Shown here in pieces: positions 13,788 to 63,259 of a stretch of DNA of 64,000 nt. Below the pieces are notes generated by a model. The model saw only the letters and a program-made list of their open reading frames with translations, was not told the DNA's origin and did not search any database. The stretch covers positions 8,384,582 to 8,448,581 of the forward strand of contig OZ004583.1 of assembly GCA_963924555.1 (NCBI GenBank), in the 5' to 3' direction. How positions within the stretch are numbered: position 1 is the stretch's first letter; each line of letters opens with the position of its first letter. A program made the translations under genes and the position numbers. Origin of the DNA: Crambe crambe (taxonomy: Eukaryota > Porifera > Demospongiae > Poecilosclerida > Crambeidae).

Positions 13788-14369
13788 TCAGAGTGCAGTT
13801 ATTTCGGAGTAGATCCCCACAAATCCCGAATTCTCTTGAGATCTTTCTCCTGTTTGGTTCCCATTCATTGCAATAGTGTTGCCTTGAGCAGTCCCACCTC
13901 CCCGTGCTTGAACCTGCATGCATCGATTCCAATCAGTAGCTTTTTTTTTAGTCCTTGCTCTAGAAATATTACTTAAGAGATCTCACTTTAGCCAGCTTTG
14001 AAGGGATTGAATAACTCGGCTCTTGTGATCCTGGTTCCTAGAGGATGAGGGTATTGATAATACGACTGTAACAGTGCAGCCTCTAAATTAGGGATGTTAT
14101 TGATGGATTGCAGAATGTGCAATAATAATGGACTGGGAAAACTTGCTATTTTGGTACATTGAAGGGTAAAGTCCTTTTCCACACACCATAGCTAGCCTGG
14201 GTAAACACCAATATTGAATCAAGACCTACATTATTGTGATTCCTGTCCAGTTCTGATGGAATGGAGTAGCTTGGCTCATCCATTTGAGGTGGAGGTATCA
14301 TCCTCCCATTAGCACCGCTAGCCTGTCGAGTGGATATATATAGACAGCTATTAAGTATGGTGCTGGTTG

Positions 14370-14441
<72 letters not shown>

Positions 14442-17070
14442 GCATTTCTGTTCTGGTTTGATAGGACAGAGTAGCCTTCCAATTCAGGATCCTGAGTTGG
14501 TGGGATACTACCATCCTCTCTTGGATTTCTTCTGACCTATGAATAATATTAGTTTGGAATGAAGACTAATATAGTTCACATGCATGCATGGATAAGACTC
14601 AGAGGTATCCTGACGTTTCTTGCGAGGCTAGAGTAGTCTTGCTGAAGCTGTTGAGTGGGCAGGACATTGTCATGATTCCTTGCATCTCTTCCTCTAACCT
14701 GCAAGAGGGTGAAAGGTGAAAGGTGAAAGGATACTCATAATAACACTATGTAGGATAACACCCCATTCAGACTGACGTTATTCCTTGTTAACTCTGACAC
14801 GACTGAGTATCCTGATTCTTCCATTTCGGGCTCATCAGGTGATTGATAAATTTTCTGTGTGCTATTGGCAATAAGAATAACAATTTTAGTTTCACCATAA
14901 TAAAAAACATGATTAGCAAAGTTAGGTCAGTAATACATAACTTTGGAAGAATGCTTAATGGTTTGGCTATAATAACAATCATGATTATAATTATCAAGGG
15001 AATAGCTGTGGTTTGGTGTAGAATATGATGGATATTTCTACATAAATTAACATTAATTTCCTGGCCTTTGCTTCCTGATGAAAATCAGAACTCTCTCCCT
15101 CTATTTGTATCCTGCTAATAATTATGCGGGTATTCTTACCGTGAGATTGTGTGTAGTCATTGTAATGAATGCTTACCTGATATCTGACAATGATGGGACT
15201 GCTTGGAGTGTGTGGAGTACTACTATCACTGGACCTGTAGCTGGAGGGGGAGAAGGGGATTGAGGGATCGATTAGATATTCCGGGAAAGGGGAAAGTAGC
15301 TACATAGTGACTTGATCTGTATCATAGTAACGTTTTGATGTACTGCAATTTAGACTATTAAAAATGTACCTTGGTACTTGAGCATATGAGGTTTCTGCTT
15401 GTCCAGGATGTTTAGCTACAGGTGAGATATTAACCAGCTGTCATAGCATGTACATCATGACATGATAATATGATTAAAATCTTACGTAAGAGAGATAACT
15501 TCAATCTGAGAAGTACAATCACTGCTATAACAACAACTGAAATCAGCAGGAGTGCAATTACTGCTGATGCACCACCAATCACTGCTCTGACTGTATCATT
15601 GATACCTATATGTAGTTATAAGGTGATAAGAGAGAAGTTAGTAACCCCTTTTCAAAGCAGTTTACCTACACTTTCTCGTTCTGTGGTCTGTGTTTGATGA
15701 CCTAAATGACAATTTAGAAGTTAAATAATGCTGTAAGAATAGTATATAGCTGTTCTTCACCTCCAGTTACTTGCTCTGTGGATGGCATTATACAATCACT
15801 TTGAGGTATATACATCTCCATGGAAACGCTCTCACTCTTCAGAAATGAGTCACAGTTGGTGGAAAACAGGTCCACAAAGTACGTCATGTTATATTCCAAT
15901 GATGTAGTGAAGTTTCTGATATTGCTATCCAGTAGTGTTGCGATTTCCTCATAGGAATCATCCATTGGTGTTATTGTCAAGTTATATAGCTCTGTGGTGG
16001 TCCGAGCATCCGTAGGGGGTAGCCAGTGGATGTGGATGTCCACTGTGGCATGTGAGTCAGTGCAACTCTCGCTGTAGTTGTAGGACAGAGAGGAGGGAGG
16101 GGATGGCCATCCTGTATAAGGGAAAGTTCATTGGAAGTGGAGGGAGGAGATAGTTACACACAACTGCAAACTTATCACTGGGCATTCATCCCATTAGAAT
16201 ATGGTTGTCCCCTCCCCCCATAACCCCATAACACCTTATGCATGTGATGTACCACCTGTCAGTGAGCTGTACAAGCTATTTCTTCACTATTGTTATATTT
16301 CAGAGGTTTAGGTTACATGACAAAGTAATACTGTTTAACTAGTTAAGAAGCATGATTGCGGCACAAAATGAAACTGAACCACCATAGCTACATGTTTATC
16401 TTTAGAAACCATGTATTTGTGTTTGTATATCCATGCATGCATGCATGGATGTGCACATGCATGTGAATGTTTTTCAGCAATCCAGATATGATCATGGGAG
16501 AAGTCAGTAACCTAGCAACATTCAGGGTTTTCAGAATTATCTGGTCCAGTGGTTGTGTGTGTGCAATAAGTGAGTGAAGTCAATCACCTGGCACATCCAG
16601 ATATCTGTAATTTTTTGAGTCTTCACAGTCAATCTTGAGAGTGCATGCAGGAATAGTTAGACCTGAGTACAGTGATGCTCATGTTGCTTAGTGTCGTGGC
16701 GTTAATATGTTTGAATGTGAGCAATGCTGTGAAGCTAAACATTTCTCCTTCATCTGTGGCACAATCATGTCGTATTTCTTTGCTGTTATTGTTTATAGAT
16801 TCAGAATAACCAGGATATTCCTAACCAGGGCATATGAAATGCCACGTAATGGATGAAAGTGTCCCTGTGGAGTGACAGGAATACTGAACTGTACTTCCAG
16901 GACAAATTTCCATCCTTACATCCTCAGGATAAATAGTAGTGTTTCCAATGGAAACTAGATCAAACAAGAAGTATGTATCATAACATCTCTCCTAGGACTT
17001 TTTATAGTTTACCTTTGAGCAAGAAGTACAAAGTTAAAATCCTTGGCAGTAATATTGAGGCCACCATCAT
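13788..17070 (-). pseudogene. receptor A: Ig-FN3-TM with six tyrosine-motif tail exons; Ig exon broken
   Basis: Thirteen exons can be placed by homology to gene B and by splice phase: signal peptide 17070-17013, Ig-like 16954-16588, FN3-like 16111-15761, linker 15701-15666, TM 15605-15486, then tail exons 15415-15370, 15234-15177, 14854-14777, 14698-14615, 14536-14444, 14322-14230, 14037-13987 and 13913-13788 with a TGA stop. Extracellular introns are phase 1; the last six tail exons are joined by phase-0 introns. The tail reads TSYAQV (ITSM-like), ESGYSVV (ITIM-like), QDYSSL, LEGYSVL, EPSYSIP twice and GIYSEI. The 14444 donor is GC rather than GT. The Ig exon has TAG where gene B has CAG (CPGQEYPGY) and an 8-base deletion near 16645, so no full receptor can be made from this copy. 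The tail itself is open throughout. Confidence 0.7.
14372..14438. repeat. (GA)n microsatellite in a tail intron of receptor A
   Basis: Uninterrupted GA dinucleotide repeat of about 67 bp, just downstream (minus strand) of the GC donor at 14443-14442. Confidence 0.95.
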
Positions 17071-17563: not shown

Positions 17564-19294
17564 CTAATGGTATAGAGTCACATTATTCTGTATTTGGTTT
17601 TCGGAAATAGTGACACACGAGTATGCCACATTGTTATTGAGTTGGATATCTTCCCCACATACATGTTCTAAAATCACAGTCTCATACTCATGCCCTTGAG
17701 CATCATCATCATCATGCCCTTGAGCATCATCACCATGCCCTTGAGCACTGCTGTCATATCTTCGAGGATCACCTTGTCCATATAACTTCAATCTGATATG
17801 TATGATCAGTGCTATGGCAGTAACTGAAGTTAGCAAGAGTGCAATTATTATCACTGCTGATACACCACCGATCACTGCTCTGAGTGTATCATTGATACCT
17901 GTAGTTATAAGGTGGTAAAAGAAAGTTAGTTATCCCTTTTCAAAGCAGTTTACCTCCACTTTCTCGTTCTGTGGTCTTTGTTTGATGACCTAATGAAAGT
18001 TTAGAAGTTAAAATAATGCATAAGAGTAGTATATATAGCTGTTCTTCACCTCCAGTTACTTGCTCTGTGGATGGCATTATACAATTACTTTGAGTTATAT
18101 ACATCTCCATGGAAACACTCTCACTCATCAGAAATGAGTCACAGCTGGTGGAAAACAGGTCCACAAAGTACGTCATGTTATATTCCAATGATGTAGCAAA
18201 ATTTCTGATATTACTATCCAGTAGTGTTGTGATTTCCTCATAGGAATCATCCATTGGTGTTATTGTCAAGTTATATTGTTCTGTGGTGGTCCGAGCATCC
18301 GTAGGGGGTAGCCAGTGGATGTCCACTGTGGCATGAGAGTCAGTGCAACTCTCACTGTAGTTGTAGGACAGGGAGGAGGGAGGGGATGGCCATCCTGTAT
18401 AAGGGAAAGTTCATCGGAAGTGGAGGGAGGGGATAGTTATACATAACTGCAAACTTACGTATAATGGGCATTCATCCCATTAGAATATGGTTGTCCCCTC
18501 CCCCATGAAACCCTGATGCATGTGATAATACCTACACTGATCATGATTAATTTTATTCCCTACTGTTTATTTGGCATCATAAAATCACCATCAAAATATA
18601 CTTGTTTATCTTCAAAAGCCATTATGTATTTTGTGTTTGTCCATGCATGTGCACGTGCATATGACTCTTTTGGATATTTTTTCAACTATCCAGCTATGAT
18701 CATGAGGGAAATCAGTAACCCAGCAACCGACACACTGCAGAATTATTATACCATTATCTAGCCCAGTGGTTGTGTGTGTGCAATAAGTGAGAAGTGAAGT
18801 CAATCACCTGGTACATCCAGGTATCTGTAATTTTCTGAGTCTTCGCAGTCAATCTTGAGAGCGCATGCAGTCACTATGGAGTTGTTAGACCTGAGTACAG
18901 TGATGTTCATGTTGCTTTGTGTTGTGGTGTTAATATGCTTGAATGTGAGCAATGCTGTGAAGCTAAACACTTCTCCTTCATCTGTGGGGGGACAATCATG
19001 TCGTATTTCTCTGTTGTTATTGTTTATAGATTCAGAATAACCAGGATATTCCTGACCAGGGCATATGCAACGCCATGTAATGGATGAAAGTGTTCCTGTG
19101 GAGTGACAGGAATACTGAACTGTACTTCCAGGACAAATTTCCATCCTTACATCCTCAGGATAAATTGTAGTGTTTCCAATGGAAACTAGATCAAATAAAA
19201 AGTATGTTATAATAGCTCTCCTAGGGGATTGTTTACCTTTGAGTAAGAAGTACAAGGTTAAAATCCTTGGCAGTAATCTTGAGGCCGCCATCAT
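17564..19294 (-). CDS. receptor B: Ig-FN3-TM receptor with ITIM-like tail, intact
   Basis: Five exons, all joined in phase 1: signal peptide 19294-19237 (MMAASRLLPRILTLYFLL), Ig-like 19185-18808, FN3-like 18394-18050, 12-residue linker 17989-17954, and TM plus tail 17898-17564. The Ig-like exon starts IYPEDVRMEICPGSTVQYSC and has further Cys and Trp residues in an Ig-like spacing, with several N-glycosylation sites. The FN3-like exon has the Trp (IHWLPP) and the Tyr-rich strands (EQYNLTITPM, EYNMTYFVDLF). The TM helix is VIIIALLLTSVTAIALIIHI. The tail has two to three DDAQGH repeats, HEYETVIL and NNVAYSCVTI; VAYSCV fits the ITIM consensus. A GTG six bases upstream also opens the frame, but the ATG at 19294 aligns with gene A. 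This is the cleanest copy of the four-gene subfamily. Ligand and function are unknown; a cell-surface recognition receptor is inferred. Confidence 0.75.
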
Positions 19295-19425: not shown

Positions 19426-21449
19426 TTATGTATCCATGCATGGTAAATCATAATAATAATCACTCAGAATCCCCAACTTGAATGGGAAGTAGCTAATGCT
19501 TTTCAACCATACCTGAAGAGCTGAAGGGTTATGAATCATTATTAAAACTTTGATAACTTGGACACACTGATGTTTGTTTATGATAATTAATGGGTAATTT
19601 TTATTGATGTGTATTTGGTAGCAGATGATCTTGACGCACGAGTATGCCACATCATTATTGAGTTGTGTATCTTCCCCACATACATCTAAAATCACAGTCT
19701 CATACTCATGCCCTTGAGCATCATCACCATGCCCTTGAGCATCATCATCATGCCCTTGAGCATCATCATCACCATGCTCTTGAGCATCATCACCATGCCC
19801 TTGAGCATCATCATCATGCCCTTGAGCATCATCACCATGCCCTTGAACATCATCACCATGCCCTTGAGCATCATCATCATGCCCTTGAGCATCATCACCA
19901 TGTCCCTGTGCTGTCGTGTCCTTGAGCATCACCTTGCCCAGATAGCTTCAACTTGATATGTATGATCACTGCTATGGCAATAACTGAAATCAGCAAGATT
20001 GCAATAATTATCACTGCTGACGCACCACCGATCACTGCAGCTCTCAGTGTATCATTAATACCTGTAGTTAAAAATATAAAGTAACCTCATGCAGCTTTAT
20101 GCATGATACCAGTTGTATAATATTTATAATAGCTGGCTGTTGTTCACCTTGTTCTGTGGACTGTATTTGATAACCTACGTAATAGTAAAGCAGAGCATAT
20201 TAACTAGTTGAGCTATGTATATAGCTGTTCTTCACCTCCGGTTACTTGCTCTGTGGATGGCATTGTATAATTACTTTGAGGTATATACATCTCCATGGAA
20301 ACGCTCTCACTCTTCAGAAATGAGTCACAGTTGGTGGAAAACAGGTCCACAAAGTACGTCATGTTAATGTAGCGAAGTTTTTGATATTACTATCCAGTAG
20401 TGTTGTGATTTCCTCATAGGAATCATCCATTGGTATTATTGTCAAGTTATATTGCTCTGCGGTGGTCCGATCATCCATGGGGGGTATGTCTACTGTGGCA
20501 TGTGAGTCAGTGCAACTCTCGCTGTAGTTGTAGGACAGGGAGGAGGGAGGGGATGGCCATCCTGTAATAAGTACATGTATGCATCAGCAAGTAATTATAA
20601 TATGTAGCTACACTTAGCCTCTTCCCCAGGCTAGCTACACTTAGCTACTAGCTTAATTTTATGCTGTGCATGCTTGATCATGATTTTTTTTGGAGATATT
20701 ATTCAAAGCTGCTTAGCTAGTTGCATAATATTGATAGGCATGCATGTTGCAGCAAAAATGAAATTGGTTTTGAAAGATGTAGCTATGTTTACCATAACTT
20801 GTTTTCAAATCACCATGTGAAACATGACTGTGCAATTATGTGATCACTAAATTTTCAATAAACATGCTGTGACTGTATGGAATGTTTTGTTTTTTTTCCA
20901 GTTATGGAGTAAAAGTAACCCAGCAAAATGCAGAACTAAACTTGCAGAATATTTTGTTTGTAAAAGTACCTGGCATATCTAGGTATCTGTAATTTCCTGA
21001 GTCTTCACAGTCAATTCTGAGACTCCATGCAGTCACTATGGAGTAGTTAGACCTGGGTACAGTGATGCTCATGTTGCTGTATGTTGTGGAGTTGATATGC
21101 TTGAATATGAGCAATGCTGTGAAGCTAAGCATTTCTCTTTCATCTCTGGCACAATCATGTCGTATTTCTTTGCTGTTATTGTTTGTAGATTCAGTATAAC
21201 CATGGTCCTGATTAGGACATATGAAATGCCACGTGATGGATGAAACAGTCCTTGTGGAGTGACAGGAATACTGAACTGTACTTCCATGACAAATTTCCAT
21301 CCTTACATCCTCAGGATAAATAGTAATGATCCCAACTGAAACTAGATCAAACAAGAAGCATTTTCAAAAGAATTACTAATGGCTGTCCAATAATTATTAC
21401 CTTTGATTAAGAAGCAAAATATTCTCAGCAGTAATATCAAGGCCATCAT
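19426..21449 (-). pseudogene. receptor C: Ig-FN3-TM paralog with frameshifts and expanded tail repeat
   Basis: Exons match gene B: signal peptide 21449-21401 (MMALILLLRIFCFLI), Ig-like 21341-20970 (open), FN3-like 20561-20236, linker 20174-20148 and TM/tail from 20061. The FN3 exon has lost about ten bases where gene B encodes SLEYNM, giving an early TGA, and has an in-frame loss of three residues at HWL. At the TM/tail junction about five bases are missing relative to gene B, so the GHGDDAQ repeats are read in another frame from the helix. The repeat array in the tail (19709-19925) is about four times longer than in B. The tail end again contains HEYETVIL and DVAYSCV. Confidence 0.7.
19709..19925 (-). 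repeat. minisatellite encoding (D)DAQGHGD repeats in receptor C tail
   Basis: About eleven 18- to 21-bp units of the type CATCATCACCATGCCCTTGA, coding on the minus strand for an Asp/Gly/His/Gln-rich stretch. Units differ by whole CAT codons (18 versus 21 bp), so length changes keep the frame. Confidence 0.85.
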
Positions 21450-21925: not shown

Positions 21926-24900
21926 TTATTTTGGTAGCAGATGAACTTTGGGAATAGTGACGCACGAGTATGCCACATTGTTATTGAGTCGGATATCTTC
22001 CTCACGTATATCTAAAAACACAGCCTCGTATTCATGTCCTTGAGCAACATGTCTCTGAACATCATGTTTTGTTGAGGCATCATATCCTTGAGCACGTCCT
22101 GTGACATCACCATGTCCTCCCATATTGTCATTTGATAAACCACTCGAATGCATTTGAGAGAGAATCATTTCCTTAGCGAGGGCGAGCTTCTTCTGTCTTT
22201 CCTTATACTCAGCCACTTTCCTGGTTCGTGAGATCACCAAACAGCAGGTGTAGATGAGGTACGTTATGAGGGAGAAAGCTAAGGAGCTGCACAGAAACAC
22301 TGACACACTCACAGCTATAATAACTGTCATGCTAACATTCGGTGTAGGATCTGGAGATAAATACAAGTTGTGGAATGCACGTCAACTAGTAACATAGCTA
22401 GAACATTGAAATATGAACCATAATAGTTCTTATGTATGTTTCAATGGTGAAATGCACAGCTAAGCTTACCTGTGCCACTTGTAAGGGTTGTCTCTGTGGA
22501 TGACTCATTTGTAGTACATTGAGCTGATGATACATAGACTTCCATGGAAATACCCTCACTTGTTTGAAGTGCCCCACAGATGGTAGTGCGTAGGTTCATG
22601 ATGTACGCTATGTCGTATTGTAGAGCTGCTGGTGTGTTCCTAGTGTTGCCATCAAGTAAGAATGTAAATTGTTGATGCGAATGATTTATTGGTGTTATTG
22701 TCAAGTTATATTGCTCTGTGGTGGTCCGAGTGTCCATGGGGGGTAGCCAGTGGATGTCCACTGTGGCATGTGAGTCAGTACAGCTTCCACTGTAGTTGTA
22801 GGACAGGAAAGAGGGAGGGGATGGTCGTCCTGTATAAGGATATGAATAACCAACCATGTACAGTAAGATATGACATTATCTAGTCTATTAATTGTGTGTG
22901 CACAATAATAATGTGAAGTCGTTTACCTGGCATATCCAGGTATCTGTAATTTCCTGAGTCTTCACAGTCAATTCTGAGACTGTGTGCAGTCACTATGGAG
23001 TAGTTTGACCTGAGTACAGTGATGCTCATGTTGCTTTCTGTTGTAGAGTTTATTTGCTTGTATGTGAGCATTGCTGTGAAGCTAAACATTTCTCCTTCGT
23101 TTGTGGCACAATCATGTCGTATTTCTTTGCTGTTATTGTCTATAGTTTCAGTATAACCAGGATATTCCTGACCAGGGCATATGAAACGCCACGTAATAGA
23201 TGAAAGTGTCCCTGTGGAGTGACAGGAATATTGAACTGTACTTCCAGGACAAATTTCCATCCTTACATCCTCAGGATAAATAGTAGTGATTTCGATGGAA
23301 ACTATAGATCAAATAACAACAACAGTGATTTATTAACCACGACTAGCGTAAGCACACCTATTATCGCCATGTTTTTGTCCACACCCTCTATATATCCTCC
23401 ATACTTAGTGCTATTAACAAAGTTCAAAGGCCAACTGGAAGGGAAATTACCTGGTTATGTCAGGTAGCTGAATAAGCACTTCATTATTTGCCACATTCAA
23501 CTATTAACCCTTTGTAGTCTAGTAGGTGAGGTTGGCGATAATAGGAAGATTTTACCTATTTCCGCCACCCCATAAAACTGTTATATAAAATGGCAAGACA
23601 TTATTATAAATTTGAATTAGAACATTGCTGACACACATACTTTTTGGAAACACTGTTTTTGCCAAAAACACACTTGTTATGTGCCCATTTGTCACATTTC
23701 TCACAATCAATCCAAAAAATCACTTCATCTTTAACATCATCAGGCTCCTTAAGGCCACAAATAGCACAGAGTATTCCATCATCTTCAGGCTCTTCAGCAT
23801 CTTTTCGAAATCGAGCTGGCAGATTTCGTCTAAGGCGAGGTCGATTACTGCTGGCAAGGCTATCAGAGCCTGCTGCTTCATTTGTTTCTGTTTCAGGCAC
23901 TTCATCTAGATCTGTTTCAGGCACTGCTCTTTCATCATTGGCTTCTTCAGCTTCATCATCAGCTTCTCTTTCATCATCAGAGTCACTCTCAATAATCACC
24001 CTACGCTTCTTCAACGGGCCTTTTCCTTTTCCTCTTCCTTTACCTCGCTTCCTGGCAGCTTGATCTTTCTTCTTTTTTGCTTTCTCCAGTTTCTCTAGTT
24101 TTTTTTTTCTCTCTCTCTTCTTTCTTCTGCTGCTTCAGTTCTTCAGCTTCTTTCTTCTTCCTTTCATCTTCTAGCAGCATCTGGTGATAATCATCAGCAG
24201 TGAGATCCCTGGCACCAGTAATCCGTTTTGTACGTTTCTTCTCAACTGCTGCATCTGGAGGAGGAATTGCAAGAATATCTGAGAGGTCATCTGGAATGAG
24301 GCCAGCAGACACTAAGGGGTTCACTATTGGAGTACGACGAATACTGGATAATGCCTGTGGAGTCGAGGTACTAACAGGCGGAGTTGAGGTATTAACCGGT
24401 GGAGTTGAGGTACTAACATGTGGAGTTGAGGTACTAACATGTGGAGTTGAGGTACTAACGGGTGGAGATGAGCAAGGAATCGAAATACTGGGGGAGCTGA
24501 GTAATGGTGGTGACACAGATGCTGAACTAATGCCAGAGCTTGATGGGAATGCAGATTGAATTGAGGACTGACTTGAAGGAGTTGATTCAAGAGTCTGTGA
24601 GCTTGAAGGAGTAGATTGAGGTATGACGGAGTCAGAAGAATCTACAGAAGATTCTAATGAACTTGATGTTCCATGTAAAGTTGAGGGGACCATTTTTTCT
24701 TTCGAAATTGCACTTGGGTTGAAGGGATGAATCCCACATTTCATAAATCCGGCTTTTATGTTACTTATCGAAAAAGCACGCTCAAATGGTACTTTAACCA
24801 CTTTAGCAAATTCTCTTTTTGTAACAGTGAAGTTGTGCTTTTTGAAGCAGAGAGCACGAACCGTTTTTGAAAAATTATCTTTCAGAGATTTGAAAACAGA

Positions 24901-26342
24901 TACGTCAAGTGGTTGTAAGGCATGAGTAGTATGTGGTGGTAAGCAGAATAGAATTACATCATTAGAACGGCATATGTCAATGGTATCAATTGTCAAGTGG
25001 GACTTGTGTCCATCGACTAATAGTAGAAGTGGCCTTTGTGGAACAGCATACTTCAAGAATATCTTTGTTAACCATGACAAAAATAATTCCGAATCGATCC
25101 ACCCAGATTCTGACTTTGCGTACAATGCATCGTCTGGACCTTCAAACCGATATCTTCCACCTGGAAAGGATTTCGCATAAATTATCATCGGAGGATGGAG
25201 AATGCCCGCTGCTGAAGCACAGCACAGCACAGCATAGTTATATGATCACTTGTTCCAGTAGCTTGACTGTACACAGCTTTAGCTCCTCTGACAGTTACGG
25301 CTTTTTCTCTGGTATAGTCCAAAGGTAAAAATGTTTCATCACAATTATATATCTGTCTTGGCTTATTTTTAAGCTCGTGCTCATCAAGCTTTTCTTCCAA
25401 TTTTTTGAAATAATCATCTACAGTTTCCTGATTAAACGCCTCTGCTCTGTTACGTTCAAGGGAGTCGGTTTTCCGTAGTGTGAGTTTAGGGTGTCTTTTT
25501 GTAAAATTAGACCACCAATGATCACTTGGGCCGAGTTCTGGGTTAAATCTGTGATCATTTCCAGACCTTTTAGCTATGGCCCAGGCAAAAGCTTTCACCA
25601 TAGTACGAGTTAATGGAAAGCCTCGTTGAGCCATGTAAATGAGGTAAGAAACGAGACCATCTTCCTCAGTCTTTGTCAGTGCTGTCTTGACTCCAGGGTG
25701 GCTTCCATGCTCCACTCGTCCTCTAACTCTGTCCTCAAGTGTTTTGCGTGGCACATTACACTTCAAAGAGGCTCCCCTTATTGACATTCCTTCTTCCACA
25801 TATTCCATGGCTTTTTCCATATCATCATCTTTCCAAAGCTTACGCTTTTTTGGAGGCATTCTGTAAGGCACATAAAAAGAGGCTACTTAGATGACTAGCA
25901 CAGCCTAATTCAACCTATTTCACTGTAAACACACCTTAAAGTCCCTAGTACCAAAACTATCTCAAGTTAGACAGCTATACACATACCTTATCTCCTCAAA
26001 GTAGCCTTGCACTAAGGTAAGTGCTGTGGACAAACTAAAGAGGACGTAGAAATGTATATTGCTTCACTAGATCTAGCTTTTCTTGGCGTCTGAAGCAGTT
26101 AGAGCAGTCCAAAATACACCAAAAGAAAGCATGTGCTCTGTGCTATTCACTGAGCATGCTCATTGATGATTATTACACACCCACAAAAAGATAATTGGCT
26201 ATTGGCGATAATAGGGAGCACTTCCTGTATGGCGATAATAGGTCAGCTTACGCTATATTAACCACGACTGTAACAGTTACAATAAGTCACCTTTGACTGA
26301 TAAACACAGAACCACAGTCTTTAACAATGCTGAGATCACCAT
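21926..26342 (-). CDS. receptor D: Ig-FN3-TM receptor, intron 1 carries a pogo element
   Basis: The signal-peptide exon is 26342-26291 (MVISALLKTVVLCLSVK). Intron 1 holds a complete pogo-type transposon (23346-26253). The remaining exons are Ig-like 23301-22927, FN3-like 22829-22470 and TM plus tail 22350-21926, all phase 1 and all open. The short linker exon of genes A-C is absent. The TM helix (VIIAVSVSVFLCSSLAFSLI) and following basic segment are unlike those of A-C, but the tail end HEYEAVFLDIREEDIRLNNN followed by VAYSCVTI is the same, with an ITIM-like VAYSCV. So the extracellular modules and tail end are conserved while the membrane segment was exchanged. Whether the 2.9-kb insert is spliced out cleanly cannot be told from sequence. 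Confidence 0.7.
23346..26253. mobile_element. pogo-type DNA transposon inserted in receptor D intron 1
   Basis: Terminal inverted repeats start GCGTAAGC and contain ACCTATTATCGCC; a TA lies just outside each end (23344-23345 and 26254-26255). The 12-mer GGCGATAATAGG occurs four times near the ends (23357-23368 inverted, 23534-23545, 26204-26215, 26231-26242), probable transposase-binding repeats. Outside the TA, the 13-mer TATTAACCACGAC occurs on both sides. The right flank continues as the receptor D signal-peptide exon region. Confidence 0.8.
23604..25871 (-). pseudogene. pogo/Tigger-like transposase with C-terminal PHD finger, two frameshifts
   Basis: Three overlapping minus-strand frames make one protein. 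Frame 1 (25871-25185) has a basic start (MPPKKRK), a psq/CENP-B-type helix-turn-helix (GMSIRGASLKCNVPRKTLEDRV) and the first catalytic Asp in IYNCDETFLPL. Frame 2 (to 24040) has LLLLVDGHKSH (second Asp), CLPPHTTHALQPLDVSVFKSLK (third acidic residue), a Ser/Pro-rich linker with STPPVST repeats and a Lys/Glu coiled coil. Frame 3 (24014-23604) has an acidic region and a PHD-type finger, CAICGLKEPDD ... CEKCDKWAHNKC ... CQQC. The first break is a 5-base gain in a CTGTG run near 25215; the second is one extra A in a ten-A run near 24110. Both are slippage-type changes, so this looks like a recently dead element or assembly slips. Confidence 0.8.
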
Positions 26343-26670: not shown

Positions 26671-28499
26671 TTAATAATTCTTATTGGTCTGATTTACTGA
26701 GTAAGCTACATTCTCAGTCACTTCAATGTTTCCAGGAACTACTTCTTCATACACTGGAACAATTGGAGCGAGGTTTATCACATGTTCCCCTGACTCCGAG
26801 TGTGTAATGGTTGGCAAGGGTTGCATCCTCAATTGCTTCTTTCTACACTTCTTTCCCAACAGTATAAACCCCAAGAAAATTATCATGATGATAAAGAGGA
26901 CAAAACTGGTTGATATTCCAATCAATGCTGATATCAACATTTCCACCTTGGCATTGTGTTCACTCATAGGCATACAATTCTCTGTGAGATTAAATAAAAC
27001 CATATCATTGCCACACTCAGAGTGATATGCCATGGTATATCCCTTCCTCCTAAAAGAGAACATGCAGCTCTCCTATCTAGTGCTGTTAAGAATGAAATGG
27101 ATCATGCATCACCATATCCAGCATAATTATAGCCATTGCAATCATACTTGTATTTGGAGTAGTTGTGATGTTGTCTGTACGATTACACTGAGGGAGTGGT
27201 GTCCAATTCCCATTAGTACAGGTGACAGTTGTCTTATTAGTGGGGAAATACCCTTCATCACACTGGAAGGTCACACTAGCCCCTTCAGTTGTGCTGGAAA
27301 AGTTCCCCAACCGACCAATTGTGAGAAGTATGAGAGGGTCACATTCTTAATGAGGAGGGAAATTATTATTAAAAGTGACATCATTACTTTTATGCATTAC
27401 CTTCAATGGGATTGACACAAATGCTGTCATCAAGACTTGAGTTCCATCGTCTGTTTATTCCACACTCCACCATGACTTCCCTTCTACTGTTATTACACTG
27501 AAGGACTAGAGTCTCTCTTTGTGTCGTCGAGGAGTAATAATGGTGTGTGATAATTGAAGTATTTAGTGGACCAAGCAATGGGCAATGACCTGTGCAAATA
27601 ATTCATGGAAATAAAATAGCCACAATATGTATACGTTACTACCAATTGAGAAATGTGATGATGTATCATCTTGTGATATTCCATGACAGTAAGAGGTAGT
27701 GATGGTGATGTTGTAGAGTGTATTATTTCTCAGTTGAAGAGTTGCTGAGGAGTTGAAGGTGGTGAAGTCACCCCTGCCTGATGGTGGGGAAGGAGACACT
27801 GTGATGGAGTAACTGTCAACTCTCTCTGAATGTATTGAACTCCAAGTAGCCATTAAGGACTGCACACTGTCATTCACTTCGTCTAGAGGCAGCAGACTCA
27901 GACTTGAAAAATGTGAGTCTGGAACTGAATTGATATCATTTCATTGGATGTTGGTTAAATTGTATCTATGTAGCTAGCAAGAAGCTGAGCCCCATACATT
28001 ATTATACTCACAGATGATATTGAGTATGGCTTGATCATCTCCGTTACATGTGATTCTGGTTCCATTGAGTTGGAGTGCCACTGTTATGTGAAGTGTTGAG
28101 GTGAATGTGGTGCCATTCATGGAGGTGAACTCAGCTCTAACTGGAGAAGATGCTAGTGCATTATTGTAGATCATTCCAACTGGATCAAGTTCAGTGTCAA
28201 TAACAATATTAATGGTCTGCATATGTGGAACTGACAGCATCCACACTACAAGGAAGTCATTGACAGTGCAGATATAGACTACTTCATCACCAGGACAGAG
28301 AATAGTGGTCTCATTAATCCTGATGAGGTCTGCAGCTATACAAATTCAGTGTACATAACTAACTAGATATAAACTACAGCTAATTATTAGCCTATGACTG
28401 TATGTTGCTATTACCTGATCTTGTCAGTATCAGATTTAGAATGCAGACACAGCATATCCATGCAGCAACTTGAGATATAGCTGTAGTCATGACAGACAT
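26671..28499 (-). CDS. receptor E: Ig-FN3-sushi-sushi-TM receptor, intact
   Basis: Six exons: signal peptide 28499-28415, Ig-like 28329-28012, FN3-like 27924-27643, sushi-like 27589-27401, sushi 27345-27148, TM plus tail 26981-26671. The Ig-like exon has ILCPGDEVVYIC and ITVALQLNGTRITC. The FN3-like exon has MATWSSIHSERVDSYSITVS and NNTLYNITITTSYC. Each sushi (CCP) module has four Cys with the expected late Trp (ECGINRRWNSS; CDEGYFPTN then CTNGNWTPLPQC). The helix is LISALIGISTSFVLFIIMII, followed by KKCRKKQLR. The tail has PIVPVYEEVVP and TENVAYSVN. All reading frames are open and splice sites canonical; I estimate about 460 residues. Family-level similarity is to animal complement-control and Ig receptors; no vertebrate orthologue is recognisable. 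Role inferred as a surface recognition receptor. Confidence 0.75.
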
Positions 28500-47479: not shown

Positions 47480-47902
47480 CCTGTGAATATTATTGCAGTA
47501 GTAATATTAATTTTTTGTTGTGTTCTTTTTGACAGGATTATGAAGTGTCTACTTGGAAAGTCTACACTATAGATTGATTGTACACACAGCTGCAATGTTA
47601 CCATTCGATTAGCTGATCAATGCACATGCACTAGTGATGTATTTTAAACAATTGTGTGCTTTCATTATAAAAGAAGTGGGTGGACACAATTTTTATGCTG
47701 TTCTATATGTTAATTATTGGTACAATCATTCATATTTACCTTCAAATTTCCAGTGTACTGTGCAAAAAAAAACGGCCCCACTGAAAAGAACTTGGAGTAG
47801 AAAAACAGTAAATGCACTATAAAACAAACGGTTATTGTCTGCAGGGTTCAATTTATCGCAGAAATGAATGTCAATGCACTCTTAACCCGTAGTTGCATGC
47901 AC
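47480..47902. other. spacer, nothing recognised
   Basis: A run of A followed by CGGCCCCACTG near 47763 resembles GCAAAAAAAAAAATGGCCCC near 44640, in the same orientation on both sides of the CXC-family ORF. It may mark the ends of the unit that carried that gene. Confidence 0.4.
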
Positions 47903-48840
47903 CTTCAATAGGATATTGCCACAAATGCTGTCATCAAGATCCATTGTCCATTTATTCTGCACTCCACCATGACCTCATCTCCACTGTTATTACACTGAAG
48001 AACTAGAATCTCTCTATGTGTCATCAAAGAGTAATAATGGTGTGTGATAATTGAAGCATTTAGTGGACCAAGCAACCTGTGCAAATAATAAAATAAGTTA
48101 AGACTCAATACGTTACTACCAATGGAGAAATATGATCTTATGATATTCCGTGACAGTAAGAGGTAGGTAGTGATGGTGATGTTGTAGAGTGTGTTATTTC
48201 TCAGTTGAAGAGTTGCTGAAGTCTCACCAGGATTTTCAGAAAGGGGGGGCACATCAGAGATATCTCTGGGCACATCCGTGCGCTTGTGCACGAAAAAATT
48301 TTTTACTCAGCTTTGGCCTTTTTAGGAAAACTGTGCCCACTTGATGATTAGCCAGTCTGCAGGTAACTTGCAAACTGTTGTAATTCTTATAAGTGGCCAC
48401 ACCAAAAAGGGGGGGGGGGGGGGGGGGGGGGGGGTGCATGTGCCTGAAATGCCCACTCCTAGATCCACCACTGCTGATGGTGGGGGAGGAGACACTGTGA
48501 TGGAGTAACTGTCCACACTCTTGATATATTGAATTCCATGTAGCCTGCACACTGTCATTTACTTCTTCTAGAGGCAGCAAACTCAGACTTGATGGATATG
48601 AATGAGGGTCTAGGATTACACACAGCTCAAACAATGATCAAATTTGCCTCCAAGCTATAGCTAACTTAGATGTTGAACCAACGGTGCAGACATAGATTAC
48701 TTCTTCACCCATTACTAATAATGCCTGCATGTCCATCAAAATCAAGTGATAATAATTATAATGATCAGTAGACTCTCTAGCCATATCATATTCAGCCTCC
48801 ATCATGAGTAGACTCTGCTTTGTAGTTGACTATATAATAG
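47903..48840 (-). pseudogene. receptor I: remnant of Ig-FN3-sushi gene
   Basis: Minus-strand remnants in the order of genes E-H. There is a start of the Ig-like exon near 48730-48675 (GGTGAAGAAGTAATCTATGT), with most of that exon deleted, then an FN3-like exon 48614-48125 interrupted by a foreign insertion at 48235-48470, and a shortened sushi-like exon 48076-47903. The second sushi and TM exons are absent. The FN3 part still shows YSITVSPPPPS and NNTLYNITIT. It is clearly non-functional. It lies at the corresponding place to gene H in a duplicated block. Confidence 0.7.
48235..48470. mobile_element. insertion in receptor I FN3 exon with 26-base G tract
   Basis: The inserted DNA separates two halves of the FN3-like exon. 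Its right end, read inward on the other strand, is CAGTGGTGGATCTAGG, typical of hAT-like non-autonomous elements. It contains an unbroken G run at 48409-48434. The left end does not match well, so the element is decayed or another end was lost. Confidence 0.6.
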
Positions 48841-50123: not shown

Positions 50124-51023
50124 CTATAGTACATGTATTGTGCCTATGATGAGAATGGCTACAAGAAAAGCAACTCTATAAGGAACTATGTAACACAGTG
50201 CAGAATTCAATGCCACTGTCTCTACTCTAAATGTTACTCTTCGGTCACCTATGTCTAGTGTAGAAACGGGTCTTGAGGGAGTTTGAGTGGATACTGAGTA
50301 TATCGGCTGATTCCCAGATTCACCTATACACTGGATGGAACTCTGTCTAAATTCATTCGAAAGGATTAGTAATGAAGTACGTTCAGTATTATTCAAGCTA
50401 TTTTGTCTTCTCGACAGAAGAATTGAGCTACATCGTAGTGCAGTTCCAGCAGCATTGGTACTCTTTGTTGAATTTCCAGGTTTTTCGTGGCCATTGAACC
50501 GGCCGATGGTCCTGCCATCAGCACGCCATATAAGATATCTCCCTGAAGCACTACAGAATAGAAATTTGTAAGGGAGTTCTGCCAACCTATCATTACTCTG
50601 TTCTCTTATTAATGGGAAATAATCAGCATCTTGAATTCTTCCACTCTTGCATTGGATTGAATTTCGTTGTGATGAGTATTCGTCAGACACAAATAGCACA
50701 GAGCTTCGCTGGGTACTGTTGACATTGTTTTTTTGCTCTAGTAAGATTGAAACATAAATGACTCTCATTCCATCAGGACTGGTTCTTTTCATGAGCTGAC
50801 CAACTGTAGAACGACCGTTGAATTTTCCTAAAGTTCTCCCACTATCTATGGCTCTCCAAGTTAGGCTATTCCCGGTCCCGGTACCTGACTCCGCTGAGGC
50901 ATTACAGTAGAGAAGTGTGTTGTTGTCATTCAGCAGCAAACGTAACGGTAAGGACCCCGTAGAAGAAGTTCTTGATAACGCAGCATTAGTGCTCAGCAGT
51001 GACAGTACTAAAAAAAGCTTCAT
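50124..51023 (-). CDS. receptor K: two-Ig-like type I membrane protein, intact, single exon
   Basis: A 299-codon frame from ATG at 51023 to TAG at 50124. Residues 1-16 (MKLFLVLSLLSTNAAL) form a signal peptide. Two related Ig-like units follow. The first runs roughly 36-130 (LLYCNAS, LTWRAIDSGRTLGKFNG, SIQCKSG) and the second 145-245 (FLFCSASGRYLIWRADGRTI, LLILSNEFRQSSIQCIGES). Each has two Cys, the WR after the first Cys and many N-glycosylation sites; the units clearly arose by internal duplication. Residues about 280-299 (VPYRVAFLVAILIIGTIHVL) form a C-terminal TM or lipid-anchor signal with almost no cytoplasmic tail. The gene has no intron, unlike its neighbours. A GPI-anchored form is possible. 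Function unknown; the glycosylated two-Ig ectodomain beside other receptor genes suggests cell recognition. Confidence 0.75.
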   Translation of the reverse strand: MKLFLVLSLLSTNAALSRTSSTGSLPLRLLLNDNNTLLYCNASAESGTGTGNSLTWRAIDSGRTLGKFNGRSTVGQLMKRTSPDGMRVIYVSILLEQKNNVNSTQRSSVLFVSDEYSSQRNSIQCKSGRIQDADYFPLIREQSNDRLAELPYKFLFCSASGRYLIWRADGRTIGRFNGHEKPGNSTKSTNAAGTALRCSSILLSRRQNSLNNTERTSLLILSNEFRQSSIQCIGESGNQPIYSVSTQTPSRPVSTLDIGDRRVTFRVETVALNSALCYIVPYRVAFLVAILIIGTIHVL

Positions 51024-54500: not shown

Positions 54501-55090
54501 GTTCCATGGGTTCCTCCAGTTCCATTGGTTCCTCTGGTTCCATTGGTACCTCTGGTTCCTCTGGTTCTATGGGTTCCTCTGGTTCCTTGGGTTCCATGTG
54601 TTCCTCTGGTTCCTTGGTTTTTCTGGTTCCATGGGTTCATGGGTTCCTCTGGTTCCATGGGTTCCTCTGGTTCCATGGGTTCCTCTGGTTCCATGAGCTC
54701 CTCTGGTTCCTGATTTCTGGTTTCTTCTGGTTCCATGGGTTCCTCTGGTTCCATAGGTTCCTCTGGTTCCATGAGCTCCTCTGGTTCCTGATTTCTGGTT
54801 TCTTCTGGTTCCATGAGTTCCTCTGGTTCCATGGGTTCTTCTGGTTCCATGGGTTCCTCTGGTTCCCTGGTTCCATGAGTTCCTCTGGTTCCTGGTTTCT
54901 GGTTTCTTCTGGTTCCATGAGTTCCTTTGGTTCCATGGGTTCTTCAGGTCCCATGAGTTCCTCTGGTTCCCTGGGTTCCTCTAGTTCCTGGTTTCATGAG
55001 TTCCTCTGGTTTCATAAATTCCTCTTGTTCCATGGTTCTCGCTGTTCCTTTCGTTCCTCTGGTTTTATTTCGTTCCTCTGGTTCTAGTTC
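51530..55090. repeat. 3.5-kb minisatellite of 9-bp units (GGTTCC + NNN), coding-like on both strands
   Basis: Built from GGTTCCTCT, GGTTCCATG and GGTTCCTTG units with higher-order repeats; the string TCTGGTTCATGAGTTCCTCA recurs at about 52911, 53324 and 53601. The plus strand is open for 465 codons (51521-52918) as Ser/Gly/Met repeats but has only a GTG start and no known domain. The minus strand reads Met-Glu-Pro-Glu-Glu-Pro repeats ending ECTVTEIVA and a stop at 51505, and is interrupted by TAG codons (CCAGAG to CCATAG) and single-base losses. If coding, the minus frame (Glu/Pro-rich acidic repeat) continues the character of the neighbouring ORF at 55881-56582; a single gene is possible but unproven. 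I annotate it as a repeat. Confidence 0.8.
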
Positions 55091-55800: not shown

Positions 55801-55880
55801 AACAATACACAATGTCATACGTACTTGTCCTTTTTGGTCTGGCTGATTGAGACTCATTGGCTGGTTGGGTCACTTCGGTG

Positions 55881-60036: not shown

Positions 60037-63000
60037 ATGGAGAAGCAGATGCTCAGTGTAGTGCTTCTGAATTTGATACTGGCAGAAGCAGGTAGCTACA
60101 TAACATATTATTCAAAAGCATGTATATTATGATTTGATGGACAGGCATCATTAGGTTCAATGGGAGCAATATTCTGTGTCCTGGTGAAGAAGTAGTCTAT
60201 GTCTGCACTGTTGGTTCTGATGGCTTAATTTGGGACTTATCTGTTCCAAATGGAGAGGAGATAGATATCATTATTGACCATGAATTGGATCCAGTGGGAA
60301 CAGTCTACAATATAGAACTACTATCATCCTTTCCAGTTAGTGCTGAGTTCACCTCCATGAATACCACCACAATCATCTCAACACTTCACATAACAGTGGC
60401 ACTCCAACTCAATGGAACCAGAATCACATGTAACAGAGATGATATAGTCACACTCGATATCACCTGTAAGTAAAATCATGATAGCTATAGCTATCAGCTA
60501 GTGATTAGATATGGTTCATGTGTAAGCTGTACTGACTCAATATAGCTAGCTATCTAGCAAAGTTGAGCAGTGTATTGTAATCCTAGACCCTCATTCATAT
60601 CTTTCGAGTCTGAGTTTGCTGCCTATAGAAGAAGTGAATGAGAGTGTGCAGTCCTTCATCGCAACATGGAGTTCAATGCATCCAGAGAGAGTGGACAGTT
60701 ACTCCATTATAGTGTCTCCTCCCCCACCATCAGGCAGTGGAGACTTCACTACCTTCAACTCCTCAGCAACTTTTCAACTGAGAAATAACACACTTTACAA
60801 CATCACCATCACTACCTCTTACTGTCATGGAATATCACAAGACGATATATCATCACATTTCTCAATTGGTAGCTAGTAGCTAACAGCTAGCTATTTTATT
60901 TTGTGATTTGAATGATTTGCACAGGTCACTGCCCATTGCTTGGTCCCCTAAATGTTTCTTCAGACTATTCTTACTCCTTGACGACACAAAGAGAAACTCT
61001 AGTCCTTCAGTGTAGTAACAGTGGAGATGAGGTTATAGTGGAGTGTGGAATAAATGGACGATGGACCTCAAGTCTTGATGAGAACATTTGTGGCAATTCC
61101 ATTGAAGGTAATGCAATAAAAGTGACGATGTCACTTTTAATAATAATTTTCCCCTTCATTAAGAATGTGACCCTCTCATACTTCTCACAATTCGTCAATT
61201 GAGGAACATTTCCAGCACAAGTGAAGGGGCTAGTGTGACCTTCCAGTGTGACGAGGGGTATTTCCCCACTAATAAGACAACTGTCACCTGTACTAATGGG
61301 AATTGGACACCACTCCCTCAGTGTAATCGTACAGACAACATCACAACTACTCCAAATACAAGTATATAAATAAACTTCATCTAGGCTATAGCTATAATAA
61401 TTATTTCCTTCATAGTTATAGCTCCAGGCCATAGAGTTTTGATCATCAGTACAGTTTCTGCATTATTGGTTGTACTTCCTGCCTTCACCATAATATTATG
61501 TGTGATATGTTTGAAGTATGGGCATAAGCATTGCAGCAGTAAATCAGGTATATTGTGTGTAGAAATCATAACTAAAAATCATAACAACATGAGCCTATTT
61601 TCTAGTCCAGAGATATGAAAGCTCAAATGTGAGGTATGAAGGGAAACATTTAGCTAACTGAAACTAGTTAATAATGTATGATATCTCCAGATTTCAGCAA
61701 ACGTCTTTTGTCCAGACTCCTGAGTTCCAGGTCAGCCAAATTAATTCACACTTAACTTGGATTTACCCTCCCAACAGGACCCAGTGTCGTATCACACTCT
61801 TGTGCACAATAATGGCAACCCATCAAAATATGATGAGGTCTCATTGGACAGAGATTCTTATCACCGCACAATACATCAGATCAGTAACACATGCAATGTC
61901 AATCAGGTATAGTTTAGATGTAATAAAAAGTTTATTATTACATGTACAGTTGATATGTATGGCTCTCTACAATTGATATAATAGGAGAGTGAATACAGTT
62001 ATGTTAACCCTATGACACTACAAAAGACAACAAGTATAAAGGTTTGTAATAATAATTATAATAGCTATAGCTGCAGTGGAACCTTCAAATGATGGAAATA
62101 CTTACAACCCAGCCTCTTGTTGTTTATGAGAGGTCATTTTGGGAGGTTATTTTCTAGATTGTCCTTTAGAGTGTGGAGGTTCTACTGTATACATACTTGA
62201 TATAATAATAAGCCTGTACTTAACTTGATCCAATGTCCAGCATGATCGTGGATATGGTCTTCTGGACACATCTAGCACAAGAAATACAGAAGCACTAAAC
62301 TCTGCTAGTACTGATGCTGGAGTTGCAGTGTTGACTGGTTGCTATTCTATTGACCCACAAACAGTTATGCACTCTGGAGAAATCAATCCTGGCCCTCAAG
62401 GTAATTCCCAAACTCCCCCAAAAACATAACAAGAGAGTTCAGAAAAGCCCATACCATATACTGTACCTCCGATGGAGTTAATTACCACAGCATTTCATCC
62501 TCTCACGTTATAGCTATAGCAGTCTCAGTGTTAGCTATGAAATTAAAGATCCTCAGAAATCGCCATGTGTAATAGCTATAATTATACTGGTGTAAATCCT
62601 TTCAGCCAGCTAAGATGCTGCCAGATACATCAGGGTGCAGTTAGCTTACATATGATATTTATGCATACAGATGTAGTCTATAGTAAACGAAAAAGTCTTA
62701 TTTCTCATAACTGCAATGATTAAGTTGACATAGCCAACATAATACTGCTAGTTTTCATTACTGATTACCATCTCTATAGCAAAATTATTGTAACCAAATA
62801 GTTAATAGTTGTGTATACAGGCCTGTTATCGGTTGTTAATTTACTCCCAACTTTCCAGGTACTATACCTGTTATGGATTCGGTCACAATAAACTTTCAAG
62901 ACGACTCATCTCTGATGCCACCAGATGATAATAGTAGGGGTCAACCCATTCAGTATACTACAGGGACACCATCTCAGTATATCTCTAACCCCCCTCATGG

Positions 63001-63259
63001 TCATGATGGCAATGAACATTTGCAAGAGACTGGTGTGGTTCCTTTATGCACTGCCACTACTGATAAGAGTGATAGTTGTCATGTGAATCAAGATGCTGAT
63101 GAGTTACCTGTTCCTCCAGACATACTGTCATTCAGCAAGGGATCCCTTCTCCATCCTGTACCTCCAAAGCCTGCACCAAAGCCAGCACCAAAGCCTGCAC
63201 CAAAGCCAGAACCTTGTCATCTTAAAATACTTGTTACAACTGAACAACAACAACAATAA
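60037..63259 (+). CDS. receptor J: Ig-FN3-sushi-sushi-TM receptor with long multi-exon ITIM-rich tail
   Basis: Twelve exons join in frame: signal peptide 60037-60091 (MEKQMLSVVLLNLILAEAG), Ig-like 60145-60465, FN3-like 60587-60868, sushi-like 60925-61107, sushi 61164-61361, TM 61416-61547, then tail exons 61606-61633, 61691-61730, 61778-61906, 61985-62041, 62241-62400 and 62859-63259. The ectodomain is closely related to G and H. The TM exon is unrelated (VLIISTVSALLVVLPAFTII, then KYGHKHCSSKS). The tail has VSYHTL, SKYDEV and SEYSYV (all fit the ITIM consensus), YVNP (Grb2-SH2-type YxN), and PPKPAPKPAPKPAPKPEP (SH3-ligand-like), ending in a short Gln run. This is the only receptor on the plus strand. 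All exons are open with GT-AG introns. The tail predicts phosphotyrosine signalling; ligand unknown. Confidence 0.75.

What the first reader, a model, noticed from the sequence alone, without database searches (positions are those of the whole stretch)
13788..63259. Cluster of Ig/FN3/sushi receptors with tyrosine-motif tails: candidate recognition complex
Seen: eleven receptor loci (A-K) plus the dead two-Ig copy K'. A-J share a common exon plan with signal peptide, Ig-like and FN3-like modules on phase-1 introns, with or without two sushi modules, a TM helix and a tail with YxxV/L motifs. B, D, E, G, H, J and K read as intact; A, C, F, I and K' are broken. Tandem duplication, birth-and-death pattern, variable ectodomains and inhibitory-type tails are the features of allorecognition and innate-receptor complexes in other animals (for example the Hydractinia alr region). 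Function here is inference.
Basis: partly seen in the sequence, partly recalled or inferred. Interest (0 to 1): 0.9.

Follow-up and report, generated by a model that had tools for sequence, protein, structure and literature searches.

The report
Sponge complex of tyrosine-tailed receptor genes
A stretch of chromosome in the sponge Crambe crambe carries dozens of fast-changing copies of cell-surface receptor genes with a variable outer head and inner tyrosine signals, the kind of gene set other animals use to recognise self or microbes, though its job here is unproven.

Summary
In detail: of the 12 loci, 7 read as intact and 5 are broken. The genome is the demosponge Crambe crambe (contig lengths equal the published assembly's, one to the base). 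Corrections: D's signal exon lies at 26291-26342, cut off by a pogo-type transposon. "Ig" has weak profile support only, FN3 is below Pfam's cut-off, sushi-2 passes. The strict ITIM occurs in J (three), B and D (one each), not in E, G or H. The window shows part of a larger complex: 29 loci over about 151 kb, with a related Ig-FN3-sushi array about 130 kb further on. Among nine K-type genes (the E/G/H/J kind), the front half of the head diverges more than the sushi-plus-tail body in 30 of 36 pairs (extreme 29.6% against 0.9%). Pooled dN/dS is below 1. J joins a K-type ectodomain to a tail found nowhere else in the genome. The genome also holds an ordered SH2-SH2-phosphatase locus, the expected reader of such tails. 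Best reading: a turning-over family of tyrosine-signalling recognition receptors, analogous to, not shown homologous with, Hydractinia Alr and Botryllus FcoR. Allorecognition is possible but untested; the deposited alternate haplotype allows a direct test.

The parts
13788..17070 (-). Locus A: A-type (Ig-FN3-TM) receptor, broken ectodomain; several tyrosine-motif blocks (such as TSYAQV, SGYSVV, QDYSSL, EGYSVL, IYSEI) downstream of the TM exon
   Evidence: Ig split at a TAG and a small deletion; tail blocks read by eye, splice plan not resolved
17564..19294 (-). Locus B: A-type receptor, intact; SP-Ig-FN3-short exon-TM-tail, tail motifs HEYETV and VAYSCV
   Evidence: 5-exon model, 383 aa; one dominant TM; strict ITIM x1
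19612..21449 (-). Locus C: A-type receptor, broken in FN3; tail repeat expanded (ends approximate)
   Evidence: FN3 hit split into two frames; 21-base repeat 19707-19907
21926..26342 (-). Locus D: A-type receptor, intact, with a transposon in intron 1
   Evidence: 4-exon model, 403 aa
26291..26342 (-). Signal-peptide exon of D, stranded about 3 kb from the Ig exon
   Evidence: Aligned to two copies where the exon sits next to Ig
23346..26284 (-). pogo/Tigger-type insertion inside D intron 1 (ends approximate)
   Evidence: Absent from copies at C5:8304481 and C5:8341748; Pfam DDE_1, HTH_psq, HTH_Tnp_Tc5
26671..28499 (-). Locus E: K-type receptor (SP-Ig-FN3-sushi-sushi-TM-tail), intact
   Evidence: 6-exon model, 462 aa
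28732..30419 (-). Locus F: K-type receptor, Ig broken; tail keeps VPVYEEI and NIAYINV
   Evidence: Ig split into two frames; sequence
30955..32869 (-). Locus G: K-type receptor, intact
   Evidence: 6-exon model, 462 aa
33088..35098 (-). Locus H: K-type receptor, intact
   Evidence: 6-exon model, 454 aa
36401..37258 (-). Locus K': two-domain intronless gene, broken by TGA (lower end approximate)
47894..48830 (-). Locus I: relic of a K-type receptor (ends approximate)
   Evidence: Fragmentary Ig and FN3, partial sushi-1
50124..51023 (-). Locus K: two-domain intronless cell-surface gene, intact; hydrophobic C-terminus with 6 residues after it (GPI-like or tail-less)
   Evidence: 299-aa frame
60037..63259 (+). 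Locus J: K-type ectodomain with a unique long tail over six exons
   Evidence: 12-exon model, 661 aa; the tail's three matches in the genome are all this locus
61778..62041 (+). J tail exons holding VSYHTL, SKYDEV and SEYSYV
   Evidence: Three strict ITIMs; 0.48 expected, P=0.011 by residue shuffling

Best explanation
The locus is a young, unstable complex of type I cell-surface recognition receptors in a demosponge. Each intact A- or K-type gene encodes a signal peptide, a membrane-distal Ig-like head, an FN3-like module, none or two sushi modules, one membrane helix and a tail with spaced tyrosines. Most likely the head binds a cell-surface or microbial ligand, a Src-family kinase phosphorylates the tail, and SH2 proteins dock. 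J, B and D fit recruitment of a tandem-SH2 phosphatase (an inhibitory signal); the YEEV/I tails of E, G and H fit docking of a Src-family-type SH2 domain (motif preference recalled). Gene number, order and head sequence change by tandem duplication and by exchange that homogenises the membrane-proximal body while distinct heads are kept or swapped. Shown: anatomy, copy number, head/body pattern, tail motifs, an ordered SH2-SH2-PTP locus in the genome. Inferred: ligand binding, phosphorylation, polarity, any immune or allorecognition role.
For: Six spliced models and one intronless frame. 29 loci over ~151 kb. Head diverges more than body in 30 of 36 gene pairs after Bonferroni correction; k1/k2 29.6% in the front half of Ig against 0.9% in sushi1+sushi2+tail, P=1.5e-32. 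k2 and J are 94.0% identical in the front head, but J has no K-type tail hit and its own tail occurs once. Tail motifs are kept: VPVYEE[VI] in 11 of 14 K-type tail rows and [ND]VAYSCV in 9 of 10 A-type rows; the other four rows end before or at the motif. SH2, SH2 and PTP hits in order on C18:6540942-6539084. K-type and A-type heads score above all 20 column-shuffled controls against the genome's own Ig profile (23.4 v 16.0; 20.3 v 13.8) and align to each other over 69 columns.
Against: No expression, protein or binding data. Ig and FN3 stay below Pfam cut-offs; hhalign probabilities against the Ig profile are only 26% and 10%, and sushi-1 and the K-type tail, which should not match Ig, also edge above their own shuffles (14.8 v 14.3; 12.5 v 11.5). 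Pooled dN/dS is below 1 in every module. Fourfold sites are also raised in the head (20.6% v 6.5-11.4%), so homogenisation of the body alone can explain the contrast. In 6 of 36 pairs the head is not significantly more divergent, and in k2/J it is less so. ITIM counts in B and D are within chance (P about 0.18), and E, G, H have none. The PTP match of the SHP-like locus reads through five stops, presumably introns.
Confidence: 0.66

Rival explanations
1. Allorecognition complex: the heads discriminate self from non-self conspecific tissue, as the Hydractinia and Botryllus complexes do, with J or B/D sending the inhibitory 'same self' signal and K possibly a membrane-anchored ligand.
For: Clustered tyrosine-tailed receptors with many pseudogenes match what is described for Alr (PMC11067881 passages) and FcoR (PMC12065747 passages). 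The organism is a demosponge, and demosponges discriminate self from non-self grafts (PMC5450542, abstract start). A linked two-domain gene without a cytoplasmic tail exists.
Against: No polymorphism, expression or linkage data. The main text of a graft transcriptome of another demosponge has no occurrence of immunoglobulin, sushi, fibronectin or receptor. No positive selection shown.
Confidence: 0.27
2. Innate receptors for microbes or symbionts: head diversity tracks foreign ligands, not self.
For: Expanded multigene surface receptors are a common innate strategy (general knowledge). The wider Ig-FN3-sushi superfamily is large: 75 matches to one distant head.
Against: Nothing here separates it from the allorecognition reading; no induction data.
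Confidence: 0.35
3. Ordinary adhesion or signalling family duplicated neutrally; the tyrosine motifs are incidental and the head/body contrast is only gene conversion.
For: Pooled dN/dS below 1; fourfold sites also raised in the head; transposase frames in the window; ITIM counts in B and D within chance and none in E, G, H.
Against: Heads escape the homogenisation that reaches sushi and tail within about 2 kb; tail motifs are kept in the rows that reach them; a near-identical front head is joined to a second, unrelated tail in J.
Confidence: 0.24
4. Assembly artefact: part of the apparent gene number is two haplotypes laid end to end.
For: F and its copy at 8.315-8.317 Mb are 98.6% identical over 1.6 kb and the match runs on into the next gene (94.5% over 3.1 kb); G and k5 are 98.8-100% identical in FN3, sushi and tail.
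Against: On the other side the two contexts differ: E lies beside F, a repeat-like stretch beside its copy. Most other best matches between blocks are 84-95% identical. J's tail and K occur once. The assembly was purged of haplotypic duplications and the second haplotype deposited apart (PMC12166358 passages).
Confidence: 0.1

Closest known systems
Botryllus fester co-receptors (FcoR), fuhc locus (PMC12065747, passages)
   Same: Type I receptors in a multigene cluster; Ig plus sushi ectodomain; tails with ITIM and core YxxI/L/V motifs; birth-and-death; SHP-type phosphatase in the genome
   Different: FcoR has V-Ig, sushi and two C2-Ig domains and is paired with fester; here Ig, FN3-like, none or two sushi. 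A fester-like partner was not sought. Sequence homology not tested
Hydractinia Alr family, allorecognition complex (PMC11067881 passages; Huene et al. 2022 not held)
   Same: Large family of Ig-superfamily receptors in clusters, many pseudogenes; tyrosine motifs reported in tails (PMC12065747 passage)
   Different: Alr ectodomains are tandem Ig-like (recalled); the FN3-sushi stalk differs; polymorphism and function are established there, not here
Vertebrate paired immune receptors (KIR, LILR) (recalled; PMC11999971 passage on LILRB)
   Same: Clustered Ig receptors, ITIM tails alongside other tail types, gene-number turnover
   Different: No FN3 or sushi (recalled); no evidence of common descent
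Receptor at C5:8.602 Mb of the same genome (locus L035) and its array
   Same: Ig-like, FN3-like, sushi, TM in the same order; Ig detectably similar
   Different: 26% identical in the head; the unit is repeated about every 1 kb in parts of the array, so longer proteins are likely; different tail
Geodia cydonium receptor tyrosine kinase with Ig-like domains (PMC12018476 passage)
   Same: Sponge surface protein with Ig-like domains linked to tyrosine signalling
   Different: A kinase, not a tailed receptor family; no FN3-sushi plan known to me

Membership tests
Immunoglobulin superfamily (head module) | Ig profile match above curated cut-off | tested here: not met
   0 of 8 K-type members (best C2-set_2, E 0.064, in 2 of 8) and 0 of 6 A-type members
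Immunoglobulin superfamily (head module) | Profile-profile similarity to undoubted Ig domains | tested here: inconclusive
   K-type and A-type beat all 20 shuffles clearly, the two-domain gene barely (17.0 v 16.0); but sushi-1 and the tail also edge above theirs, and probabilities are 26% or less. Solved-structure hits are mostly antibodies (5 of 6, 2 of 2, 10 of 10), none significant (best E 0.16), and the K-type hits are out of Ig register
Fibronectin type III (second module) | fn3 match above cut-off (25 bits) | tested here: not met
   K-type 4 of 4 score 15.2-17.9 bits; A-type 0 of 2 match; not separated from shuffles
Sushi/SCR | Pfam Sushi above cut-off (20.7 bits) | tested here: met
   Second module 2 of 2 tested (G 29.8, J 36.4 bits). 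First module 0 of 3
ITIM-bearing inhibitory receptors | [SIVL]xYxx[IVL] in the cytoplasmic tail | tested here: met
   J 3, B 1, D 1; E, G, H 0 of six models tested. Only J exceeds chance
ITIM-bearing inhibitory receptors | Phosphorylation and SHP/SHIP recruitment | not testable with these tools
   An ordered SH2-SH2-PTP locus exists; binding unknown
Botryllus FcoR | V-Ig, sushi, two C2-Ig, TM, ITIM/hemITAM tail | tested here: not met
   One Ig-like exon and an FN3-like exon, no C2-Ig pair, in the six models
Hydractinia Alr | Clustered Ig-like type I receptors with pseudogenes | tested here: met
   29 loci, about 151 kb; Ig label itself inconclusive
Hydractinia Alr | Tandem Ig-like ectodomain and sequence homology | not tested
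   No Alr sequence was compared; plan differs
Allorecognition locus | Head polymorphism and control of fusion or rejection | not testable with these tools
   One haplotype only was held; the second is deposited as GCA_963924525.1
Positive-selection signature | dN/dS above 1 in the head | tested here: not met
   Pooled: K-type Ig 0.72 (bootstrap 0.52-1.03), A-type Ig 0.51 (0.33-0.71). Three of the 20-codon head windows exceed 1 (1.56, 1.42, 1.68), without a test and on low dS (0.05-0.09)

The most novel reading that the evidence does not exclude
Chromosome 3 of Crambe crambe, about 8.30-8.65 Mb, is the self/non-self recognition complex of a sponge: a hypervariable-head receptor cluster with inhibitory and non-inhibitory tails read by an SHP-type phosphatase. 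Tyrosine-motif allorecognition would then reach back to one of the earliest animal branches, with heads exchanged between receptors carrying different tails (as k2 and J suggest).
Probability: 0.22. Interest if true: 0.92.

Novelty: new variant of a known kind. Interest (0 to 1): 0.65.

Why it matters
The receptors behind self/non-self recognition in sponges are, to my knowledge, not settled (recall). [quoted passage not shown] A mapped cluster in a named demosponge, with variable heads, conserved tyrosine tails and an ordered SH2-SH2-phosphatase locus in the same genome, gives a concrete interval and genes to test; a second haplotype of the same individual is already public. My searches with sponge plus ITIM, Ig, sushi or allorecognition terms listed no paper titled for such a cluster; the library holds open-licence papers only and searches listed 20 of 40, 15 of 128 and 10 of 37.

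Tried and rejected
Positive selection on the heads: not shown by Nei-Gojobori dN/dS; some 20-codon windows exceed 1 (K-type Ig columns 71-90 1.56 and 81-100 1.42, A-type Ig 41-60 1.68, K-type tail 71-90 1.89) on very few synonymous changes and without a test. Retrieval of relatives from the large protein set with the J protein: 8000 candidates scored, none at E<=0.001. Four solved-structure searches gave nothing significant. A classical ITAM was considered for the two-tyrosine tails; by eye the spacing is 12 residues or more and the second module lacks the +3 hydrophobic residue in E, G and H, so I did not adopt it. Uncollapsed haplotypes as the whole explanation: not adopted (see rivals). Because the organism is now settled as a sponge and the assembly as purged, I moved the odds slightly: allorecognition 0.25 to 0.27, novel case 0.20 to 0.22, artefact 0.15 to 0.10, neutral family 0.25 to 0.24, interest 0.62 to 0.65.
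Full report
What is there. The window is C5:8384582-8448581 of a 143.1 Mb genome in 119 contigs. Profile searches with exon seeds taken from the window recover two related receptor kinds and a separate pair. K-type: signal peptide, Ig-like, FN3-like, sushi, sushi, TM, tail (E, F, G, H, I, J). A-type: signal peptide, Ig-like, FN3-like, TM, tail (A, B, C, D). Two-domain intronless genes: K intact, K' broken. Models for B, D, E, G, H and J are open from ATG to stop; every intron up to the TM exon is phase 1, and J's later introns are mixed in phase.

Which animal. The genome is Crambe crambe, assembly odCraCram1.1 (GCA_963924555.1): its published scaffold N50 of 7,656,483 bases equals the length of contig C11 to the base, and its chromosomes of 9.57, 9.49, 8.84, 7.66, 7.63 and 7.57 Mb equal C1, C5, C9, C11, C12 and C13 (PMC12166358 passages). 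C5 is then chromosome 3. The held copy is slightly smaller (143,139,886 bases in 119 contigs against 143,197,480 in 124). Crambe crambe is a demosponge of order Poecilosclerida. The mitochondrial COX1 read with TGA as tryptophan at 7 places, with five tRNA genes on one strand nearby, agrees with this as far as I recall.

D and its transposon. D seems to lack a signal exon, but alignment with two other copies shows it at 26291-26342, separated from the Ig exon by an insertion at about 23346-26284 that those copies do not have. The insert carries pogo-type transposase domains.

Module identity. Pfam supports only the second sushi module (29.8 and 36.4 bits against 20.7 in 2 of 2 tested); the first fails in 3 of 3. 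FN3-like exons score 15.2-17.9 bits against 25 in 4 of 4 K-type copies, and 0 of 2 A-type copies match. No Ig model passes in 8 K-type and 6 A-type heads. Against 30 Ig domains of the same genome, K-type and A-type heads score well above 20 column-shuffled versions of themselves (23.4 v 16.0; 20.3 v 13.8, the latter over only 28 columns) and align with each other over 69 columns; but the hhalign probabilities are 26% and 10%, the two-domain gene is barely above its controls, and sushi-1 and the K-type tail also edge above theirs, so the control is not clean. FN3-like modules are not separated from shuffles (the FN3 reference held 5 of the 8 fn3 loci fetched). I treat Ig as likely, FN3 as plausible.

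Size of the complex. Genome searches with one head of each kind return 22 and 15 matches; 15 of 22 and 15 of 15 lie in C5:8.298-8.445 Mb. A third two-domain copy lies at C5:8377652-8378485. Reading 8296862-8345346 and 8376152-8379985 together with the window, I count 14 K-type, 12 A-type and 3 two-domain loci, 29 in all, in three repeat blocks (k6's Ig and FN3, 1.4 kb apart, counted as one locus, and one locus at the edge of the read stretch is partial). The Ig exon is at least 90% complete in one frame in 9 of 14 K-type and 9 of 12 A-type loci. Bases 8345347-8376151 and 8379986-8384581 were searched but not read. More distant relatives with Ig, FN3-like and sushi in the same order lie elsewhere (loci L031, L034, L035). 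The L035 head has 75 matches, 44 of them on C5:8.578-8.652 Mb, many about 1 kb apart.

Variable head, homogenised body. For the 9 K-type genes with a complete Ig (the other 5 of 14 loci dropped), I compared the first 70 alignment columns of Ig with sushi1+sushi2+tail. The head diverges more in 30 of 36 pairs after Bonferroni correction. The pairs share genes and sites are treated as independent, so the count is descriptive. k7 and J have no K-type tail row, so their body is the two sushi modules. The extreme pair k1/k2 differs at 55 of 186 bases in the head and 6 of 654 in the body (P=1.5e-32). The six other pairs include k2/J, where the front head differs by 6.0%, the rest of Ig by 20.2% and the body by 10.0%; J's tail has no K-type match and occurs once in the genome, so a head seems to have been exchanged between genes with unrelated tails. 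Fourfold-degenerate sites are also raised in the head (128 of 622, 20.6%) against 6.5-11.4% in other segments. Exchange that homogenises the body, with heads escaping it, explains the data; amino-acid selection on the head is neither shown nor excluded. Pooled dN/dS: K-type Ig 0.72 (0.52-1.03), FN3-like 0.46, sushi1 0.52, sushi2 0.32, tail 0.57 (0.35-1.10); A-type Ig 0.51, FN3-like 0.43, tail 0.36; two-domain 0.36 (only copies covering at least 90% of a module in one frame). Four of the 20-codon windows exceed 1, untested.

Tails. Three tail types occur. Short two-tyrosine tails carry VPVYEE[VI] (11 of 14 K-type rows) followed in most by NVAYSVN, or HEYE[TA]V followed by [ND]VAYSCV (9 of 10 A-type rows), with GHEYEKM at one copy; rows without the main motif end before or at it. 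J has a long tail with VSYHTL, SKYDEV and SEYSYV (3 found, 0.48 expected, P=0.011). A has further tyrosine blocks downstream (by eye). B and D each have one strict ITIM, which about 18% of shuffles reach; E, G and H have none.

A reader for the tails. SH2, SH2 and protein tyrosine phosphatase hits lie in that order on C18:6540942-6539084, minus strand, the plan of SHP phosphatases (one SH2 match is partial and the phosphatase match reads through five stops, presumably introns). Three strong SH2 hits in frames of about 400 codons on C15:2.907-2.912 Mb could be Src-like kinases; this is inferred from hit strength and frame length only.

How it most likely works, and comparison. Head binds ligand, tyrosines are phosphorylated, SH2 proteins dock; J, B and D probably damp signalling through the SHP-type enzyme. 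This works like Botryllus FcoR and Hydractinia Alr as described in PMC12065747 and PMC11067881 (passages), but the ectodomain plan differs from FcoR and homology to either was not tested. The main text of a demosponge graft transcriptome has no occurrence of immunoglobulin, sushi, fibronectin or receptor (PMC5450542 passages), which neither supports nor excludes a role. I rate a recognition-receptor complex 0.66 and allorecognition as such 0.27.

Noticed in passing
C9 about 2.34-3.53 Mb, C12 0.07-0.39 and 2.5-3.2 Mb, C13 3.59-3.87 Mb (same genome): Dense runs of fn3, I-set Ig and tyrosine phosphatase hits (capped lists), suggesting a large expansion of Ig-FN3 receptor phosphatases.
   Followed up: no
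C5:8578779-8652104 (same genome): 44 matches to the L035 Ig-like head, many about 1 kb apart; L035 shows Ig, FN3-like and sushi repeated before a TM.
   Followed up: partly
C5:1417826-1522148 (same genome): 29 SH2 hits on one strand, a tandem array.
   Followed up: no
38781-39682 and 43507-44410: Inverted repeat of about 900 bases, 99.6% identical, one arm reaching into a pogo-type transposase frame at 39609-41519.
   Followed up: no
51532-54988: 18-base tandem repeat, about 194 copies, strongly T-rich on the + strand, giving long open frames on both strands by repetition alone.
   Followed up: no
35240-35296: Orphan fragment of a K-type TM exon upstream of H.
   Followed up: no
19707-19907: 21-base repeat expanded within the tail exon of pseudogene C, coding AQGHDDD-like repeats.
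   Followed up: no
C1:1107529-1107615 and C1:1118827-1118916 (same genome): Short matches to the hydrophobic C-terminal end of gene K only, 62-63% identical, with stops.
   Followed up: no
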